From positions 62,001-126,000 of the forward strand of contig NZ_NFJP01000007.1 in the NCBI RefSeq assembly GCF_002159915.1: 64,000 nucleotides of DNA, written 5' to 3'. The stretch is from Gordonibacter sp. An230 (lineage in GTDB: Bacteria > Actinomycetota > Coriobacteriia > Coriobacteriales > Eggerthellaceae). The translations under genes and the position numbers were made by a program. Position 1 is the stretch's first letter; the number at the start of each line of letters is the position of its first letter. The notes under the pieces were generated by a model. That model saw nothing but the letters and a program-made list of their open reading frames with translations, ran no database searches and was not told where the DNA came from. Below, in pieces: positions 25,590-38,442 of this stretch.

Positions 25590-25679
25590 TTTTGCAAGAA
25601 GAAGCAAGAAGGGCTCGTCACGAGTGCTCGATTCGGGCGCTTGCGGCGAGCCCTTCGCGAGCGAATGAAAGGAAAGGCT

Positions 25680-26096
25680 ATGAGAAGAGCAGCGACGGCG
25701 CTTGCGGCGGCCGCGCTCGTCGCGGGTGCGGCGTGCCTGGGGTGCGCGCCGCACGGAGCAGCCGTCTCCGACGAGGACGCGCTTCGCGCGGCCTACCCGC
25801 TCAACAACCCGATGCACAGCGAGAACGCAGCCATGACGTGCGCATCCTGCCACGACGAGGAGGATCCGACGCAGGGAGTCCAAGCGGTTTCGAACGACAA
25901 ATGCCTCTCGTGCCACGAAAGCTACGACAAAGTCGCCGAGAGGACGGCCGGCATCGGAGAGGACCTCAACCCGCACAACAGCTTCCATTACGATCAACAA
26001 CTCGACTGCACGACCTGCCACAAAGCCCATTCGGAATCCGTGAACCTCTGCATGAGCTGCCACGACGCCGACCAATGGATGAACGACGCCCCCTGA
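25680..26096 (+). CDS. Tetrahaem c-type cytochrome, exported
   Basis: Electron carrier outside the cytoplasmic membrane, probably feeding the flavoprotein encoded next. The 138-residue protein has four CxxCH haem-binding motifs (CASCH 54-58, CLSCH 75-79, CTTCH 110-114, CMSCH 124-128) and several extra histidines as possible distal ligands. The N-terminus is an Ala-rich export signal ending in a cysteine-containing lipobox-like segment (CLGCAPHG). AAAGGAAAGG precedes ATG 25680; the frame opens at 25641. The pairing with an FAD subunit resembles flavocytochrome c fumarate reductase split into two proteins. Confidence 0.9.
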   Translation: MRRAATALAAAALVAGAACLGCAPHGAAVSDEDALRAAYPLNNPMHSENAAMTCASCHDEEDPTQGVQAVSNDKCLSCHESYDKVAERTAGIGEDLNPHNSFHYDQQLDCTTCHKAHSESVNLCMSCHDADQWMNDAP

Positions 26097-26160
26097 TCGG
26101 GCGCGAAAGGCAATCGTGCAACAACGCACGAGGGAGAACACGACACCCGAAGGAGGGTCC

Positions 26161-27696
26161 ATGGATAGAAAGCAGTTTCTGAAAGCCGGCCTCCTCGCAA
26201 CCGTCACAGCTGCGGCAATGGCCGGAACAGGACGCGCCTTCGCCGAGGACGGAAGCGGAAAGGAATCCGGGAACGAAGGATTCGACGAGATCGCCGACGT
26301 GATCGTCGTTGGCAGCGGTCTCGCAGCCACGGTCGCCGCCGTCACCGCTGCCGAAGCAGGAGCCAAGACGCTCGTGCTCGAGAAAATGGATCAACTCGGC
26401 GGCACTTCGCGCGTGAGCGGGCTTAACTGCGCCGTGGTAGGCAGCGACGAGCAGGCCGCGGAAGGCATTCTCGACGATCCCGAGTGGATGTACGAGGACA
26501 TGAGGAAGGTGGCCGAGGACTACGGCAACCCCGATCTGGCGCGCGTCGTGGCGGAGGGATCGCACGACCTCTACCGGTTCCTCACAGAGCGAGGAGCGAC
26601 CTTCAAGCAGCTCAAGAGCGGCGGCGGCCACAGCGCGAAGCGCCTGCTGTGGGCCGGAGGGGGACGGTACCTGCTCGACGCGCTCGTCTCGCACGCGCAG
26701 AGCACGCTCGCCGACACGCTCGAAATGCGCACGCGCTGCAAGGTTGACGACCTCGTCTTCCGCGACGGACGCGCCATCGGCGTCATCGCACGGGAGAATT
26801 ACTCGTTCGACTACGGTGCGCCAGAAACCGACGACCTTGAGAACCAGACAGGGAGCGCCAAGCGCATCGGCGCACGTCGAGGCATCGTGTTCGCCACGGG
26901 CGGCTACGCGCGCGACAAGGAGCTTTTGCGCTCCGAGTCCGCCGTCTTGGCGCAAGCGGACACCATGACCAATCCCGGAGCCACTTCCGGGGTGCTGCGG
27001 ATGCTGGCCAAGCACGGCGCGCAAACGGTCAACCTCTCGCTGTTCCGCCTGTCCTACCCCATTCCCACCGAGGATGTCTGCTGGGGCATGCTCGTCAACC
27101 CCGACGGAAAGCGCTTCGTCAACGAGCTCGGCAGCCGCAACGACCTCGGCATCATCATCCTGAGGCAGATGCGGGACTTCGACGGCAAGCCCCCTTTGCT
27201 CGTGTACGATTCGAAGGGAATCGAACTGTTCCACGACAAGCAGCGTCTTGAGATGTCGCTTTCCGGACGCAATTTCAAGAACGGAACCATGTACCGGTTC
27301 GACACCGTCGAGGAACTGGCCGACCACTTCGGCTACGACAGGCAAACGCTCGTAGACGCGGTGAGCCGCTATAACGAGATGTTCGACAACGGGGTGGACG
27401 AAGACTTCGGAAAGGACATGTCCGCTTTGCAAGGAGCCGCCATAAAGCAGCCACCTTTCTACGGAATGAACCTCATTCCAAACAACAACTACACGCCCGG
27501 CGGCGTGCGCATCGACACGTCGGCCCGCATCCTCGACTCGAACGGGAGCCCCATCGAGGGCCTCTACGCCGCGGGCGAGGTCACAGGCGGAGTTCACGGC
27601 GCACAGCGCCTCACCGGATGTTCGGCTCCTGACTGCGGCGTGTTCGGCATGGTGGCGGGCTCCACGGTCGCGGGCGCGACGCCCGTAGAGCCGTAG
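26161..27696 (+). CDS. Exported FAD-dependent reductase, fumarate reductase/Cgr2-like
   Basis: Flavoprotein of the fumarate/urocanate reductase family, reducing an unknown organic acceptor outside the membrane with electrons from the adjacent cytochrome. The 511-residue product begins with an export signal (DRKQFLKAG ... GRAFA), a Tat-like motif in which the second arginine is lysine. The FAD dinucleotide loop is VGSGLAATVAA (50-60) followed by EKMDQLGGTS, and the C-terminal FAD segment is GLYAAGEVTGGVHGAQRLTG. A strong AAGGAGGG precedes ATG 26161, 64 bp after the cytochrome gene. The substrate cannot be predicted. Confidence 0.9.
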   Translation: MDRKQFLKAGLLATVTAAAMAGTGRAFAEDGSGKESGNEGFDEIADVIVVGSGLAATVAAVTAAEAGAKTLVLEKMDQLGGTSRVSGLNCAVVGSDEQAAEGILDDPEWMYEDMRKVAEDYGNPDLARVVAEGSHDLYRFLTERGATFKQLKSGGGHSAKRLLWAGGGRYLLDALVSHAQSTLADTLEMRTRCKVDDLVFRDGRAIGVIARENYSFDYGAPETDDLENQTGSAKRIGARRGIVFATGGYARDKELLRSESAVLAQADTMTNPGATSGVLRMLAKHGAQTVNLSLFRLSYPIPTEDVCWGMLVNPDGKRFVNELGSRNDLGIIILRQMRDFDGKPPLLVYDSKGIELFHDKQRLEMSLSGRNFKNGTMYRFDTVEELADHFGYDRQTLVDAVSRYNEMFDNGVDEDFGKDMSALQGAAIKQPPFYGMNLIPNNNYTPGGVRIDTSARILDSNGSPIEGLYAAGEVTGGVHGAQRLTGCSAPDCGVFGMVAGSTVAGATPVEP

Positions 27697-33905: not shown

Positions 33906-33955
33906 GGCATGCAATGCGATGGATGAGGCCGCAGCATGCAAAGGGGATGGGGATC

Positions 33956-35371
33956 ATGCGCGCTGTCAAGAATGCACGTCGAACACGTACGTCGTTTGAA
34001 TGGGATCTTCTGGGGTTCGGGCTTTGCCGTGCATGGATCTCGACCGTGTTCGCCCTACCCATTCCCGCCTTGCTCACGCTGGGTTACGATTTTTCGCCAT
34101 GGTATTTTCTCCCCGGCGCACTCGCTTGCGTCGTGGTCGGCATCGTGTCGGAAAGAACGGTCCCCGAGCGTGCCCGAACGACCATCCTCCTCGTATCGGC
34201 TGCGCTTACGATTATCGGCATCGCCGGAACGACATCGAGCATCGGCGTCGAAAGCGAAGCGCCTATCACGATCTCACTAGTTTGCACGGGAATCGGGGCA
34301 GCGATGCTGCAGACGCTCTGGGGCGACAAGATGGCGGTTTTGCCTTCGCGCGACATCAACCTGTACACGGTCGCATCCATGCTGCTCGCAGCGTTGACGT
34401 CCATCCTCGTTTGGTCGGCGACGTCGCTTGAAGCAGCCTTGCTCGTATTCGCCGTGCTCCCCGCCGGATCGTTCATCCTTCTGTTCCGGGGCTTCGATTC
34501 GGGACGATGGAGCATCCCCTCTAAAATGGACGCAACGGAAGAGCTCGAGGACGGGCCCTTGCACCTCGACCGACTTTGCACCTCCATATTCGTGTTCGTA
34601 TTCGTGTTCAACCTCGCTTACACCACCCTGCCCGCCAGCCCTTTCGAGGACATGGCGGCACACCCGATTCGCAGCGTGGCGAACGTAAGCGTCACGATCG
34701 CGCTTCTGGCCATGCTCTTGGCGAAAGGCAACATCAACCAGATGAGCCTGTACCGCCTTTCGTTCCCCGTGCTGCTCGGAGCGTTGCTCCTCATGCTCGT
34801 GATACCCGACGAGCACGCCGTATTGGCGTCCGTGCTCGCCGCAGCCGGGTACAAGCTGTTCGACGTTCTGTTCTGGTGCGTGCTCGTAGGGCTCGCCCAT
34901 GAGAACAGGGCGATTTCATGGCGGGTGCTCGGCTTCGGCATGACCGCCAACTTCCTCGGCATGGGATTGGGCATAGGGCTGCGAGAGCGCGCATGGGCAG
35001 CGACCGCATCGGGAGCCCTCGATCCCACCCTGCTCGTGTGCGGCCTCATGTTCGCTCTCGTCGTCATCATCATGCTCATCCTGCCCGAAAGCGTCGTCTC
35101 CCAGATCATGACCCGGAGCTCGAAGAAGCAACGTCAAGAGGAGCCGTCATTGGCGCAACGCTGTTCGACCGCAAGCGAGATGCACGGGCTGACGACTCGC
35201 GAGCGGGAGGTGCTCGTCTTCCTCGCGCAAGGGCGCACGCAGGGCGTGATCGCGCGGAAGCTGAGCATCAGCGAGGGCACGGCCCACACCCACATCATCC
35301 ACGTGTACCAAAAACTGGGGGTTCATTCCCAACAGGAGCTGATCGACCTCGTGGAGGGGATCGCCGAATAA
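33956..35371 (+). CDS. LuxR-type regulator with multi-helix membrane N-terminus
   Basis: Membrane-embedded transcription factor. The first 400 or so residues form a hydrophobic domain with about ten to twelve helices, resembling a transporter fold used as a sensor. The last 65 residues are a LuxR HTH (LTTREREVLVFLAQGRTQGVIARKLSISEGTAHTHI). This architecture is abundant in Eggerthella, where such genes sit beside inducible cytochrome/flavoprotein reductases, as here. ATG 33956 follows AAGGGG; an ATG at 33914 would add 14 residues and lies almost at the predicted transcription start. Confidence 0.9.
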   Translation: MRAVKNARRTRTSFEWDLLGFGLCRAWISTVFALPIPALLTLGYDFSPWYFLPGALACVVVGIVSERTVPERARTTILLVSAALTIIGIAGTTSSIGVESEAPITISLVCTGIGAAMLQTLWGDKMAVLPSRDINLYTVASMLLAALTSILVWSATSLEAALLVFAVLPAGSFILLFRGFDSGRWSIPSKMDATEELEDGPLHLDRLCTSIFVFVFVFNLAYTTLPASPFEDMAAHPIRSVANVSVTIALLAMLLAKGNINQMSLYRLSFPVLLGALLLMLVIPDEHAVLASVLAAAGYKLFDVLFWCVLVGLAHENRAISWRVLGFGMTANFLGMGLGIGLRERAWAATASGALDPTLLVCGLMFALVVIIMLILPESVVSQIMTRSSKKQRQEEPSLAQRCSTASEMHGLTTREREVLVFLAQGRTQGVIARKLSISEGTAHTHIIHVYQKLGVHSQQELIDLVEGIAE

Positions 35372-35400
35372 AAGGGCGTCCCGCCAGGCACGGCGCGGCG

Positions 35401-35440
35401 CCTCTACCGCCTCCGGGATTCCTCTACCTGAGAGGTAGAG
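35401..35440 (+). promoter_or_regulatory. Candidate LuxR operator upstream of the hexahaem cytochrome
   Basis: The perfect inverted repeat CTCTACCT-GAG-AGGTAGAG (35422-35440) lies about 95 bp before the cytochrome start. Another CTCTACC half occurs exactly 20 bp upstream (35402-35408), two helical turns away. It falls in the short gap between the regulator and its presumed target. Confidence 0.6.
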
Positions 35441-35533
35441 AAGCGCATCGCACGCAAAATCCACCCCTCGGGCAGTTCCCCCCTTCCTCCTTTCGCTGTT
35501 CCATGGAGCCGCGGACAGAAAGGAGGGAACGCA

Positions 35534-36136
35534 ATGAAGAACCGCATCATCATCGCCTCGGCTGCAGCCATCGCGCTGGTCGGCATCCTGGCAACCGCCG
35601 GATGCGCGCCGCAGGCGAACGGCGAATCGGAAGGCGGGAACACGACGGTGCCCGAGCCGAACGGATCGCAAGCCACCGTGGCCTGGTCTCCCGATTCGGA
35701 CTGCAGCGCCTGCCACGAGAAAGAAGCGGACTCGGCGGGCGAGGCCGGATGCCTCGCGCAAGCGCACGCGCAAGAGGGATACGCATGCTCAGACTGCCAC
35801 GTCGACGAGCAAGCTCTCTCGGCGGCGCACGAGCAGAGCGCATCGAGCTCGCCGGCATCGAAGCTCAAGAAAACCGACGTGAGCGACGAAGCCTGCCTCG
35901 CCTGCCATGAAAGCCGCGAGACCGTGGCAGCCGAAACCACCGACGTCGTGCTGACGGACGACCACGGAACCGCGGTGAACCCGCACGACCTGGCTCCCAG
36001 CCCCGATCACGACGCGCTCGCGTGCACGGACTGCCACGTGTCGCACGAAGCGACACCGGCAATCGAGGAAGCGCAGAGCACATGCGCGTCGTGCCATCAC
36101 GCCGGCGTGTTCGAATGCGGCACGTGCCATACGTAA
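35534..36136 (+). CDS. Hexahaem c-type cytochrome lipoprotein
   Basis: Surface electron carrier for the flavoprotein encoded next. The 200-residue protein has a lipoprotein signal (membrane helix then ATAGC, Cys24) and six CxxCH motifs (57-61, 85-89, 121-125, 164-168, 184-188, 195-199). An acidic/Ser-rich stretch separates the second and third motifs. The start has AAAGGAGG upstream. The layout regulator-cytochrome-flavoprotein matches the Cgr1/Cgr2 arrangement of Eggerthella, although haem number and substrate may differ. Confidence 0.92.
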   Translation: MKNRIIIASAAAIALVGILATAGCAPQANGESEGGNTTVPEPNGSQATVAWSPDSDCSACHEKEADSAGEAGCLAQAHAQEGYACSDCHVDEQALSAAHEQSASSSPASKLKKTDVSDEACLACHESRETVAAETTDVVLTDDHGTAVNPHDLAPSPDHDALACTDCHVSHEATPAIEEAQSTCASCHHAGVFECGTCHT

Positions 36137-36191
36137 AAGCCTGCGTATTGCCGCGATTCGCAAAAACCGTATGCAGAACAAGGAGGAGACC

Positions 36192-37865
36192 ATGAGACAG
36201 CAGGAAGCAACCGACGTTTCGCGCCGTTCGTTTCTGAAGGGCGCGGCAGTGGCGGGAGCCTCGCTCGTCGCGACGAGCGCGCTGGCCGGGTGCGCTGCCG
36301 GACAAGCGGAGGAGGAGACGCCCGACTGGATGCCCGAAGCCTGGGATTACGAAACCGACGTGCTGGTGATCGGGTACGGAGGAGCCGGAATGTGGACCGC
36401 GCTCACAGCCGCCGACGAAGGAGGGTCGGAAGTATTGATCCTCGAGAAAGCGCCCGTTCGAGGCGGCGGCAACTCGGCCATCAACCTGGGCGAGTTCACC
36501 ATTCCCGTCGACGAGCAGGGTTGCGCCAGGTACATCAAATCGTTCAGCCGAGGGCTGACTCCCGATACCATGGCGGACGCCTGGGCAAAGGAAGCCATGC
36601 GAAATGGGGAATACGCCACCAAGTGGGGCCTGCCTTGGCAGCAGAACGAGGGCACGCTCGCCAGCCGCTACACCGAAAGCTGCGAGTACCCGTTCCTTCC
36701 CGGAGCCGACTCGATGGAGATCGGAGCCATCGAGGGATACGGCATGAACTTTTGGGACATCATGGACGCCCATCGCCAGGAACTCGGCATCGAAGTGCTG
36801 TTCAGCGTCGAGAACGAAGAGCTCATCCAGAACCCCGACACCAAGGAGATCCTCGGATGCTACGCCGACTATGAAGGCAAGCGCATCGCCATCAAGGCGC
36901 GCAAGGCTACGATGATGACCATCGGCGGGTTCGAGTTCAACGAGGAGCTCAAAAACGAGTATCTCAAGGTGTACCCGGCGCTCGGCTTCTACGGCTGGCC
37001 GTACAACACCGGAGACGGCATCCGCATGGTGCAGGCCGTGGGCGCCCAGCTGTGGCACATGAACTGCATGATCGGAGGCGCGAACCCCAACTTCCAAGAC
37101 GAACAATACCCGTACGCCATTCAGCTGAGCCCGAAAACCGACAACTTCATCTGGGTCGACCGAACCGGCAAACGCTGGCGCAACGAGAAAGCCAGCAGCA
37201 GCCCGCACGTCGGATGGCATCAATACCTCGCGTTCGACGACGGCATCTGTGACTTCCCCCTGATACCCACCTGGGCGATCATCGACCAAACCGCCTTCGA
37301 CGCCGGCAGGCTGGGGCCGGATCCGTCCGCCAAGCTCGCCCGTGGCATGTACGCCCCCACCTTGCCCGACGAAGTGGGCCGCTACCCAGGTTGGAGCGAG
37401 GACAACAAGGCCGAACTAGAAAGAGGGTGGCTCAAAACGTCCGACACCGTCGAAGGATTGGTCGAGCAGATGCGCCAGGTCGACCCGGATATGATGGACG
37501 CTGAAACGCTGAGGGCGTCGATTGACCGGTACAACGCGCATTGCGCCGCAGGCGACGACCCCGATTTCAACCGTCCGGCCGAGAGCCTGCTTCCGCTGGA
37601 CAACCCGCCGTACTATGCGTGGCCCATCTATCCCGGCGGGTGCTCCACGCTGGGCGGGCCCAAGAAGAACGAGAACGCCCAGGTTCTCGATGTGAACGAC
37701 GAGCCCATCCCACGCCTGTACGCAGCCGGATGCTTCGGGAACTTCGCCGCGCACACCTACGGCATCTCGGGAGGCAACAACGCCGAGAACATGGTATGGG
37801 GACGCATCGGTGCCCGACACGCCTGTACGCTCGATCCGTGGGATGCCGGGACCGCATCCTCCTAG
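36192..37865 (+). CDS. Tat-exported FAD reductase lipoprotein, fumarate reductase/Cgr2-like
   Basis: Flavoprotein reductase acting outside the membrane on an unknown acceptor. The 557-residue product has a twin-arginine signal (SRRSFLKG, Arg11-Arg12) that ends in a lipobox (LAGC, Cys34), so it is exported folded and lipid-anchored. The FAD loop is IGYGGAGMWTA (60-70) with EKAPVRGGGNSA, and the C-terminal segment RLYAAGCFGNFAAHTYGISGG replaces the usual fumarate reductase ending. AAGGAGG lies 6 nt before ATG 36192; the frame opens at 36171. It is 55 bp after the cytochrome gene. It is only distantly similar to the flavoprotein at 26161. Confidence 0.92.
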   Translation: MRQQEATDVSRRSFLKGAAVAGASLVATSALAGCAAGQAEEETPDWMPEAWDYETDVLVIGYGGAGMWTALTAADEGGSEVLILEKAPVRGGGNSAINLGEFTIPVDEQGCARYIKSFSRGLTPDTMADAWAKEAMRNGEYATKWGLPWQQNEGTLASRYTESCEYPFLPGADSMEIGAIEGYGMNFWDIMDAHRQELGIEVLFSVENEELIQNPDTKEILGCYADYEGKRIAIKARKATMMTIGGFEFNEELKNEYLKVYPALGFYGWPYNTGDGIRMVQAVGAQLWHMNCMIGGANPNFQDEQYPYAIQLSPKTDNFIWVDRTGKRWRNEKASSSPHVGWHQYLAFDDGICDFPLIPTWAIIDQTAFDAGRLGPDPSAKLARGMYAPTLPDEVGRYPGWSEDNKAELERGWLKTSDTVEGLVEQMRQVDPDMMDAETLRASIDRYNAHCAAGDDPDFNRPAESLLPLDNPPYYAWPIYPGGCSTLGGPKKNENAQVLDVNDEPIPRLYAAGCFGNFAAHTYGISGGNNAENMVWGRIGARHACTLDPWDAGTASS

Positions 37866-37891
37866 CAAACGGCCGCTCCTTCCTTCCCCCT

Positions 37892-37924
37892 CGCGGGCCG
37901 GCACCCCTCCCTCACCGGCCCGCG
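37892..37924 (+). terminator. 10-bp GC hairpin after the reductase gene
   Basis: CGCGGGCCGG pairs perfectly across 13 bases, 26 bp after the stop codon. No U-tract follows. Confidence 0.5.
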
Positions 37925-37980
37925 TGCGGGTAAAACCATCGATTCGCCCAGCGCTGCGCTGCGACGGCGCGAGAGTTTGC

Positions 37981-38004
37981 TATACTCCGGACATCAGATG
38001 TCCG
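37981..38004 (+). promoter_or_regulatory. ybaN promoter with 17-bp palindrome at the start site
   Basis: TATACT (37981-37986) is a near-consensus -10. The odd palindrome CGGACATC-A-GATGTCCG (37988-38004) covers the predicted transcription start, a position that would block initiation when occupied. Confidence 0.65.
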
Positions 38005-38034
38005 AAAACCGCCCTCCCCGACGGAAGGACGCCC

Positions 38035-38442
38035 ATGAGTCGCATCGCACGCTGCCTCCTGCTCGCCTGCGCCTGGATATCCTGCGCGCTCGGCTTCGTC
38101 GGCATCGCCGTCCCCGTGCTGCCGACCACCCCGCTTCTGCTGCTGGCCGCGTTCCTATTCGCGAAATCGTCGCCGCGCTGCCATGCGTGGATCGTCTCGA
38201 CGAAGGTGTACAAGGACTACGTGGAGGCGTTCAAGGAGTCGGGCGGCATGCCCGCATCGCAGAAGGTCAGGATCCTGGCCGTCTCCTTGCCCGTCATGGG
38301 CGTGAGCGCCTTCGTGGTGCAGAAGGCGCTCGTTTGGGTCATCCTCGGCTGCGTTACGGCGTTCCTGCTGTACCTCATGCTCGTACGCATCCCCACGCTG
38401 CGCCCCGATAGGATCGCGGCGCAGGACGTGCAATCGGAGTAA
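38035..38442 (+). CDS. DUF454 (YbaN-like) small inner-membrane protein
   Basis: A 135-residue membrane protein with three to four helices and the family segment GFVGIAVPVLPTTPLLLLAAFLFA, followed by a short cytoplasmic loop (SSPRCHAWI) and two more hydrophobic stretches. The function of the family is unknown. GGAAGGA precedes ATG 38035; the frame opens at 37810. It is a single-gene unit with its own operator-bearing promoter and converges with pyk. Confidence 0.85.
   Translation: MSRIARCLLLACAWISCALGFVGIAVPVLPTTPLLLLAAFLFAKSSPRCHAWIVSTKVYKDYVEAFKESGGMPASQKVRILAVSLPVMGVSAFVVQKALVWVILGCVTAFLLYLMLVRIPTLRPDRIAAQDVQSE

What the first reader, a model, noticed from the sequence alone, without database searches (positions are those of the whole stretch)
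33956..37865. LuxR membrane sensor, hexahaem cytochrome and Tat-lipoprotein reductase as one inducible cassette
The order regulator-cytochrome-flavoprotein matches the Eggerthella cgr arrangement, but this cytochrome has six haem sites and the flavoprotein is a twin-arginine lipoprotein with a divergent C-terminal FAD segment. It is probably an uncharacterised substrate-specific anaerobic reductase whose inducer is sensed by the membrane domain of the regulator.
Basis: partly seen in the sequence, partly recalled or inferred. Interest (0 to 1): 0.6.

Follow-up and report, generated by a model that had tools for sequence, protein, structure and literature searches.

The report
Sensor-controlled envelope reductase gene cassette
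Three neighbouring genes of a gut bacterium look like one unit, in which a membrane sensor switches on an enzyme on the outside of the cell and its electron-feeding partner; units of this kind are known, but this one has an unknown substrate and carries what looks like its own private DNA switch.

Summary
Confirmed: 33956-37865 holds a 12-TM LuxR regulator, a six-CxxCH cytochrome and a Tat-lipobox flavoprotein, all on the + strand. The host is a Rubneribacter species. Across 20 loci, regulator and reductase distances correlate at 0.81; 0 of 2000 permutations reach that.

Corrections: this is not the cgr order; in an E. lenta-like genome the flavoprotein precedes the cytochrome. Five or six haems are normal for the family.

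New here: (1) a palindrome, CTCTACC-N5-GGTAGAG, at 35422-35440. It occurs exactly once in each of three Rubneribacter genomes, always in this promoter. Many sister cassettes carry a TATCGGAT-N5-ATCCGATA-type site instead, with a different recognition helix. This suggests private operators. (2) The sensor domain is predicted to have an MFS-transporter fold. (3) Positions aligned with three fumarate-reductase catalytic residues are replaced, so the substrate is probably not fumarate-like.

Verdict: new member of a known kind; substrate and inducer unknown. Side finding: several related sensors, not this one, are frame-interrupted at C/G runs, a possible phase-variation signature.

The parts
33956..35371 (+). 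12-TM LuxR-type regulator: membrane sensor domain with predicted MFS fold, plus C-terminal GerE HTH
   Evidence: (PF00196); alternative upstream start at 33914
35401..35408 (+). upstream direct half-site CCTCTACC of the candidate operator
   Evidence: also in L059 and L060, variant CTATACC in L061
35422..35440 (.). candidate operator palindrome CTCTACC-N5-GGTAGAG
   Evidence: exact form once each in G000, G088 and G089, none in G133 (variant there)
35456..35465 (+). AAAATCCACC block present in the four orthologous intergenic regions compared (promoter element or second site; function unknown)
35534..36136 (+). c-type cytochrome with six CxxCH and a probable lipoprotein signal (ATAGC)
   Evidence: (PF14537)
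36192..37865 (+). Tat-exported lipoprotein FAD reductase (SRRSFLKG, LAGC; FAD_binding_2)
   Evidence: alternative upstream start at 36171

Best explanation
A substrate-inducible anaerobic respiration module of the cell envelope. An MFS-like 12-TM domain binds a small molecule (inferred). Its cytoplasmic LuxR HTH then activates transcription from the palindrome CTCTACC-N5-GGTAGAG at 35422-35440 (site shown, binding inferred). The transcript encodes a six-haem cytochrome and a Tat-exported FAD reductase, both probably lipid-anchored on the outer face of the membrane (signals seen, location inferred). Electrons from the quinol pool, through a donor not identified here, pass over the haems to FAD and reduce the substrate (inferred from Cgr1/Cgr2). 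The substrate is most likely an activated C=C, such as an enone or lactone of a dietary or host compound, rather than a fumarate-like carboxylate (inferred).
For: Domains and signals. Co-inheritance over 20 loci: reductase-regulator Spearman 0.81, reductase-cytochrome 0.57, cytochrome-regulator 0.63, 0 of 2000 permutations each. Operator: TACC-N5-GGTA in the 4 orthologous promoters that could be read and in 5 of 38 family promoters, against a resampled mean of 0.03; GGAT-N5-ATCC in 14 of 38 against 0.41. Exact palindrome once in each of 3 Rubneribacter genomes, each time here. Helix and operator class go together: AH-type helix 4 of 4 TACC; AR-type 14 of 23 GGAT and 2 of 23 CGAT; AI/AT-type 0 of 6 and AQ-type 0 of 2 (the helices of the window and L141 were misparsed there and read). 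Sensor fold: MFS, Z 33.5, rmsd 3.2, 363 residues. Reductase fold: urocanate reductase Z 35.2, 3-ketosteroid dehydrogenase 7p18 35.1 and cyclohexanone dehydrogenase 8am8 34.4, tied; Foldseek TM-scores 0.65-0.70 for cyclohexanone and ketosteroid delta1-dehydrogenases, 0.55 for 4at0, 0.54-0.60 for urocanate reductase. Positions aligned with FccA R402, H504 and R544 hold S336, C484 and I525 (R402 placed by the R402A mutant chain, the names H504 and R544 are recalled). Precedent: DadR, HcdR, CadR and the proposed Cgr1/Cgr2 electron path.
Against: No expression, binding or activity data. No NapC/NirT (PF03264) and no ResB (PF05140) match in the 96.66% complete genome, so electron donor and haem attachment are open. 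The palindrome can also fold as an RNA stem (z -2.5 is for the whole 162-nt region). No sigma-70-type promoter match in 35300-38050. In G133 the site is altered (CTATACC-N5-GGTATAT), and one Slackia locus with an AR-type helix (L138) also has a TACC-N5-GGTA. 7 of 23 AR-type loci show neither site. Shared species history inflates the distance correlations. The cytochrome's lipobox is weak in the window copy.
Confidence: 0.7

Rival explanations
1. The reductase is an ordinary carboxylate (fumarate, urocanate or acrylate type) respiratory reductase with a drifted active site, and the regulator senses that acid.
For: Best PDB profile hits are flavocytochrome c3 and urocanate reductase; urocanate reductase Z 35.2 is tied for best fold.
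Against: The positions aligned with R402, H504 and R544 are non-basic in the window protein; C484 is invariant in the 35 sequences of A3 and I525 is 90% or more conserved. The alignment near R402 is weak.
Confidence: 0.2
2. The enzyme runs in the oxidative direction in vivo, as a ketone or steroid desaturase that passes electrons to the cytochrome.
For: Highest TM-scores are with cyclohexanone and 3-ketosteroid delta1-dehydrogenases.
Against: Cgr2, a distant relative with a known activity, reduces, and a gut anaerobe gains more from an electron sink (inference).
Confidence: 0.08
3. The palindrome at 35422-35440 is an RNA hairpin (attenuator) and not an operator.
For: It folds as an 8-bp stem with a 3-nt loop.
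Against: No T-run follows it; a direct half-site lies 20 bp upstream; many sister promoters hold a different sequence with the same N5 spacer, and the class follows the recognition helix.
Confidence: 0.12

Closest known systems
10-12-TM LuxR regulators of Coriobacteriia (DadR, HcdR, CadR; PMC9734109, passages read)
   Same: N-terminal 12 TM helices, C-terminal GerE HTH, gene next to a redox enzyme
   Different: inducer unknown; a palindromic operator is proposed here, while the main text of that paper holds 0 of 'inverted repeat' and 0 of 'palindrom' (supplements not seen)
cgr operon of Eggerthella lenta (Cgr1/Cgr2; PMC5953540, passages read)
   Same: Tat-exported FAD_binding_2 reductase plus a PF14537 multihaem cytochrome, TM-LuxR gene upstream
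   Different: 26% identity; order LuxR, flavoprotein, cytochrome; Cgr1 has a TM anchor, 3 strict CxxCH and the variants CAAICH and CLNESCH
Flavocytochrome c3 fumarate reductase and urocanate reductase (FccA, Ifc3, UrdA)
   Same: FAD_binding_2 fold; flavocytochromes also take electrons from haems
   Different: haem and flavin on separate proteins; positions of R402, H504 and R544 replaced
3-ketosteroid and cyclohexanone dehydrogenases (7p18, 4c3x, 8am3)
   Same: highest TM-scores
   Different: 20-26% identity; gene neighbourhoods of those enzymes were not compared

Membership tests
TM-LuxR regulators (PMC9734109) | GerE (PF00196) HTH at the C-terminus | tested here: met
   E 1.6e-15
TM-LuxR regulators (PMC9734109) | 10-12 N-terminal TM helices | tested here: met
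   twelve long helices in the predicted model; MFS fold
TM-LuxR regulators (PMC9734109) | activates the neighbouring enzyme gene | not testable with these tools
   needs RT-qPCR with a regulator deletion
cgr-type reductase operon | Tat-exported FAD_binding_2 flavoprotein next to a PF14537 multihaem cytochrome | tested here: met
cgr-type reductase operon | flavoprotein gene first, cytochrome with a TM anchor | tested here: not met
fumarate/urocanate reductase (flavocytochrome c) | FAD_binding_2 domain and overall fold | tested here: met
fumarate/urocanate reductase (flavocytochrome c) | R402, H504 and R544 of FccA | tested here: not met
   S336, C484, I525 at the aligned positions; the alignment near R402 is weak
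3-ketosteroid / cyclohexanone dehydrogenase | catalytic tyrosines (recalled) | tested here: inconclusive
   Y475 and Y523 are invariant in A3, but no residue-level alignment to these enzymes was read for them
bacterial lipoprotein (reductase and cytochrome) | lipobox Cys after the signal peptide | tested here: met
   LAGC in the reductase; the cytochrome has TAGC, a weaker match, read by eye; no signal-peptide predictor was on hand

The most novel reading that the evidence does not exclude
In some species the sensors of these reductase cassettes are phase-variable contingency genes. C or G runs of 9-11 bases in the linkers of TM-LuxR regulators change length by slipped-strand pairing, so that single cells switch individual substrate sensors on or off at random and a gut population hedges which electron acceptors it can respond to. 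The orthologues of the window regulator in two sister species are interrupted exactly at a C10 run; the window copy is intact.
Probability: 0.3. Interest if true: 0.7.

Novelty: new member of a known kind. Interest (0 to 1): 0.45.

Why it matters
Eggerthellaceae hold very many reductases with unknown substrates: the window genome gave 129 flavoprotein matches (some are several pieces of one gene) and 124 LuxR HTH matches. If each TM-LuxR has its own operator, regulator and target can be paired from sequence, and a reporter behind the operator would report the inducer, and so probably the substrate. The sister operator also lies upstream of one of two copies of the cassette in an E. lenta-like genome, and E. 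lenta can be manipulated genetically (PMC9734109), so the idea can be tested. If the C/G runs prove variable, drug and diet metabolism by these bacteria would have a stochastic layer that gene presence does not show.

Tried and rejected
Same order as cgr: rejected by reading the E. lenta-like locus. Six haems as a special trait: rejected. The TACC operator as general to the whole family: rejected, the first scan found it in none of 34 sister promoters; the de novo palindrome scan then showed the GGAT class. Viral carriage: one viral-contig scan found no relative. NapC/NirT electron donor and ResB haem attachment: no match in the own genome, so both steps stay open.

Phase variation, results on both sides. 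For: among 56 HTH hits in 40 loci plus the window, 5 have a C/G run of 8 or more within 1300 bases upstream, and in all 5 (L104, L105, L116, L127, L131) TM part and HTH lie in different frames at the run (L127 read by eye). In R. badeniensis 14 of the 100 listed C/G10 runs (of 105) fall in LuxR spans against 3.6 expected, two of the 14 at contig ends and some at the edge of the span. Of ten such genes checked (L205-L214; L213 and L214 are the loci L116 and L105 again) six are out of frame at the run, three in frame, one unclear (with HTH positions). In the window genome three are out and two in frame. Against: enrichment is not significant in the window genome (5 against 3.0, p 0.19) and absent in the E. 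lenta-like genome (0 against 0.8). The HTH lists were cut: 76 of 89, 87 of 124 and 63 of 88 hits were used. The end filter differed. Short HTH frames without any run of 8 or more also exist (L216-L218; L227, L229, L230). The run length is the same in two pairs of species, which free slippage does not predict. Many poly-C matches in the window genome are contig-end artefacts. No second strain of one species could be compared. A paper search listed 20 of 738 papers; none of the 20 titles reports homopolymer phase variation in Coriobacteriia.

A paper on gut respiratory reductases that I recalled (10.1038/s41564-023-01560-2) is not held and was not seen.
Full report
Observation. The regulator starts best at 33956, the flavoprotein best at 36192. 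Pfam finds a LuxR HTH, Cytochrom_c3_2 and FAD_binding_2. The cytochrome has six CxxCH. The flavoprotein has a Tat motif and a lipobox; the cytochrome has a signal peptide ending in ATAGC, a weaker lipobox.

Host. The window genome has 3.88 Mb in 73 contigs. The window is next to genes that look like infC and rplT upstream and DUF454 and a pyruvate kinase downstream; in the two sister species the neighbours differ, so the cassette sits in different places.

Family. In 138 genomes of the taxonomic family, 28 (own included) hold a match at E 1e-100 or better. Three other genomes there have 79-89% identical copies (G088, G089, G133); one more is in a sheep MAG (L107, 78%), whose contig begins close upstream. 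After that the identity drops to about 50-56%. The own genome also has a 55% paralogue with its own cytochrome and regulator. In 39 related loci, 33 hold a cytochrome relative and 36 a LuxR relative. Gene order varies: regulator, cytochrome, flavoprotein in one direction in the window group; mostly a divergent regulator and flavoprotein before cytochrome in the sister group. Over 20 loci with all three proteins intact, distances correlate: 0.81, 0.57 and 0.63. Species history contributes to this, so it supports but does not prove joint function.

Sensor. The regulator aligns along its whole length with regulators of sister cassettes (46% to G133, 28-33% to the others). The model (mean pLDDT 82) has six plus six long helices, and the best PDB matches are MFS transporters, Z 33.5 to 29 in the 50 rows shown. 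Whether it transports or only binds is unknown.

Operator. Between regulator and cytochrome lies CTCTACC-N5-GGTAGAG (35422-35440), with another CCTCTACC 20 bases upstream and AAAATCCACC downstream. The four orthologous promoters that could be read all have the TACC-N5-GGTA core. The exact palindrome occurs once in G000, G088 and G089, each time here, and not in G133, where the arms differ. In the sister group a palindrome with the same N5 spacer but other arms, TATCGGAT-N5-ATCCGATA and variants, occurs in 14 of 38 promoters, among them that of the 55% paralogue in the own genome. The class follows the recognition helix: AH-type 4 of 4 TACC; AR-type 14 of 23 GGAT, 2 of 23 CGAT, 7 of 23 neither; AI/AT-type 0 of 6; AQ-type 0 of 2. 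One AR-type locus (L138) also has a TACC site. An E. lenta-like genome has the GGAT site at one of its two copies. I read this as private operators of paralogous regulators; binding is not shown.

Reductase. The model (mean pLDDT 84.5) matches urocanate reductase, ketosteroid and cyclohexanone dehydrogenases equally by Z, the last two better by TM-score. In the profile alignment the FccA catalytic positions R402, H504 and R544 correspond to S336, C484 and I525. C484 is invariant and I525 nearly so in 35 family sequences; H339, Y475 and Y523 are also invariant and are candidates for new active-site roles. This argues against a fumarate-like substrate. The claim of an enone or lactone substrate is inference.

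Comparison with cgr. A genome of 3,632,260 bases (the size of E. lenta DSM 2243, recalled) holds the published cgr2 primer once. There the order is LuxR, flavoprotein, cytochrome. Cgr2 is 26% identical to the window reductase. Cgr1 has a TM anchor and 3 strict CxxCH plus two variants. So the window cassette works like cgr in outline but is not a member of it. PMC9734109 and PMC5953540 were seen in passages only, PMC13060105 likewise.

Electron path. No NapC/NirT or ResB match in the own genome. The donor to the cytochrome and the haem attachment route remain unknown.

Side finding. Several TM-LuxR genes of this kind, but not the window's, have their frame interrupted at a C or G run of 9-11 bases in a linker. 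Details, counts and the results against it are under Tried and rejected.

Verdict. Ordinary in kind, well supported as a unit, with an unreported-looking operator pair (one paper's main text, and one capped search are the basis) and an unknown substrate. Interest 0.45.

Noticed in passing
L104, L105, L116, L127, L131 (regulator genes); L205-L214; L220, L221, L226: TM-LuxR regulator genes whose TM part and HTH part lie in different frames at a C/G run of 9-11 bases; others with such a run are in frame (L208, L209, L212, L222, L223). Possible phase variation, or transcript slippage, or assembly error.
   Followed up: partly
L226 and L116: The regulator of the 55% paralogue has a C11 run just upstream of the HTH in both the window species and R. 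badeniensis; a mutable run kept at the same place and length in two species.
   Followed up: partly
window 25641-27696: A second cytochrome and flavoprotein pair: a 151-aa cytochrome (PF14537) and a FAD_binding_2 protein that keeps arginines at both FccA arginine positions by eye (NELGSR, HGAQRL).
   Followed up: partly
L111-L141, next to sister regulators: Sister cassettes often have a cyclophilin-type prolyl isomerase gene beside the regulator (PF00160 in L063; similar N-termini in other loci); the window cassette does not.
   Followed up: no
G000 contigs C4, C22 and others: Long poly-C stretches at contig ends, probably assembly artefacts.
   Followed up: no
window 35456-35465: AAAATCCACC conserved in the four orthologous promoters compared; role unknown.
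   Followed up: no
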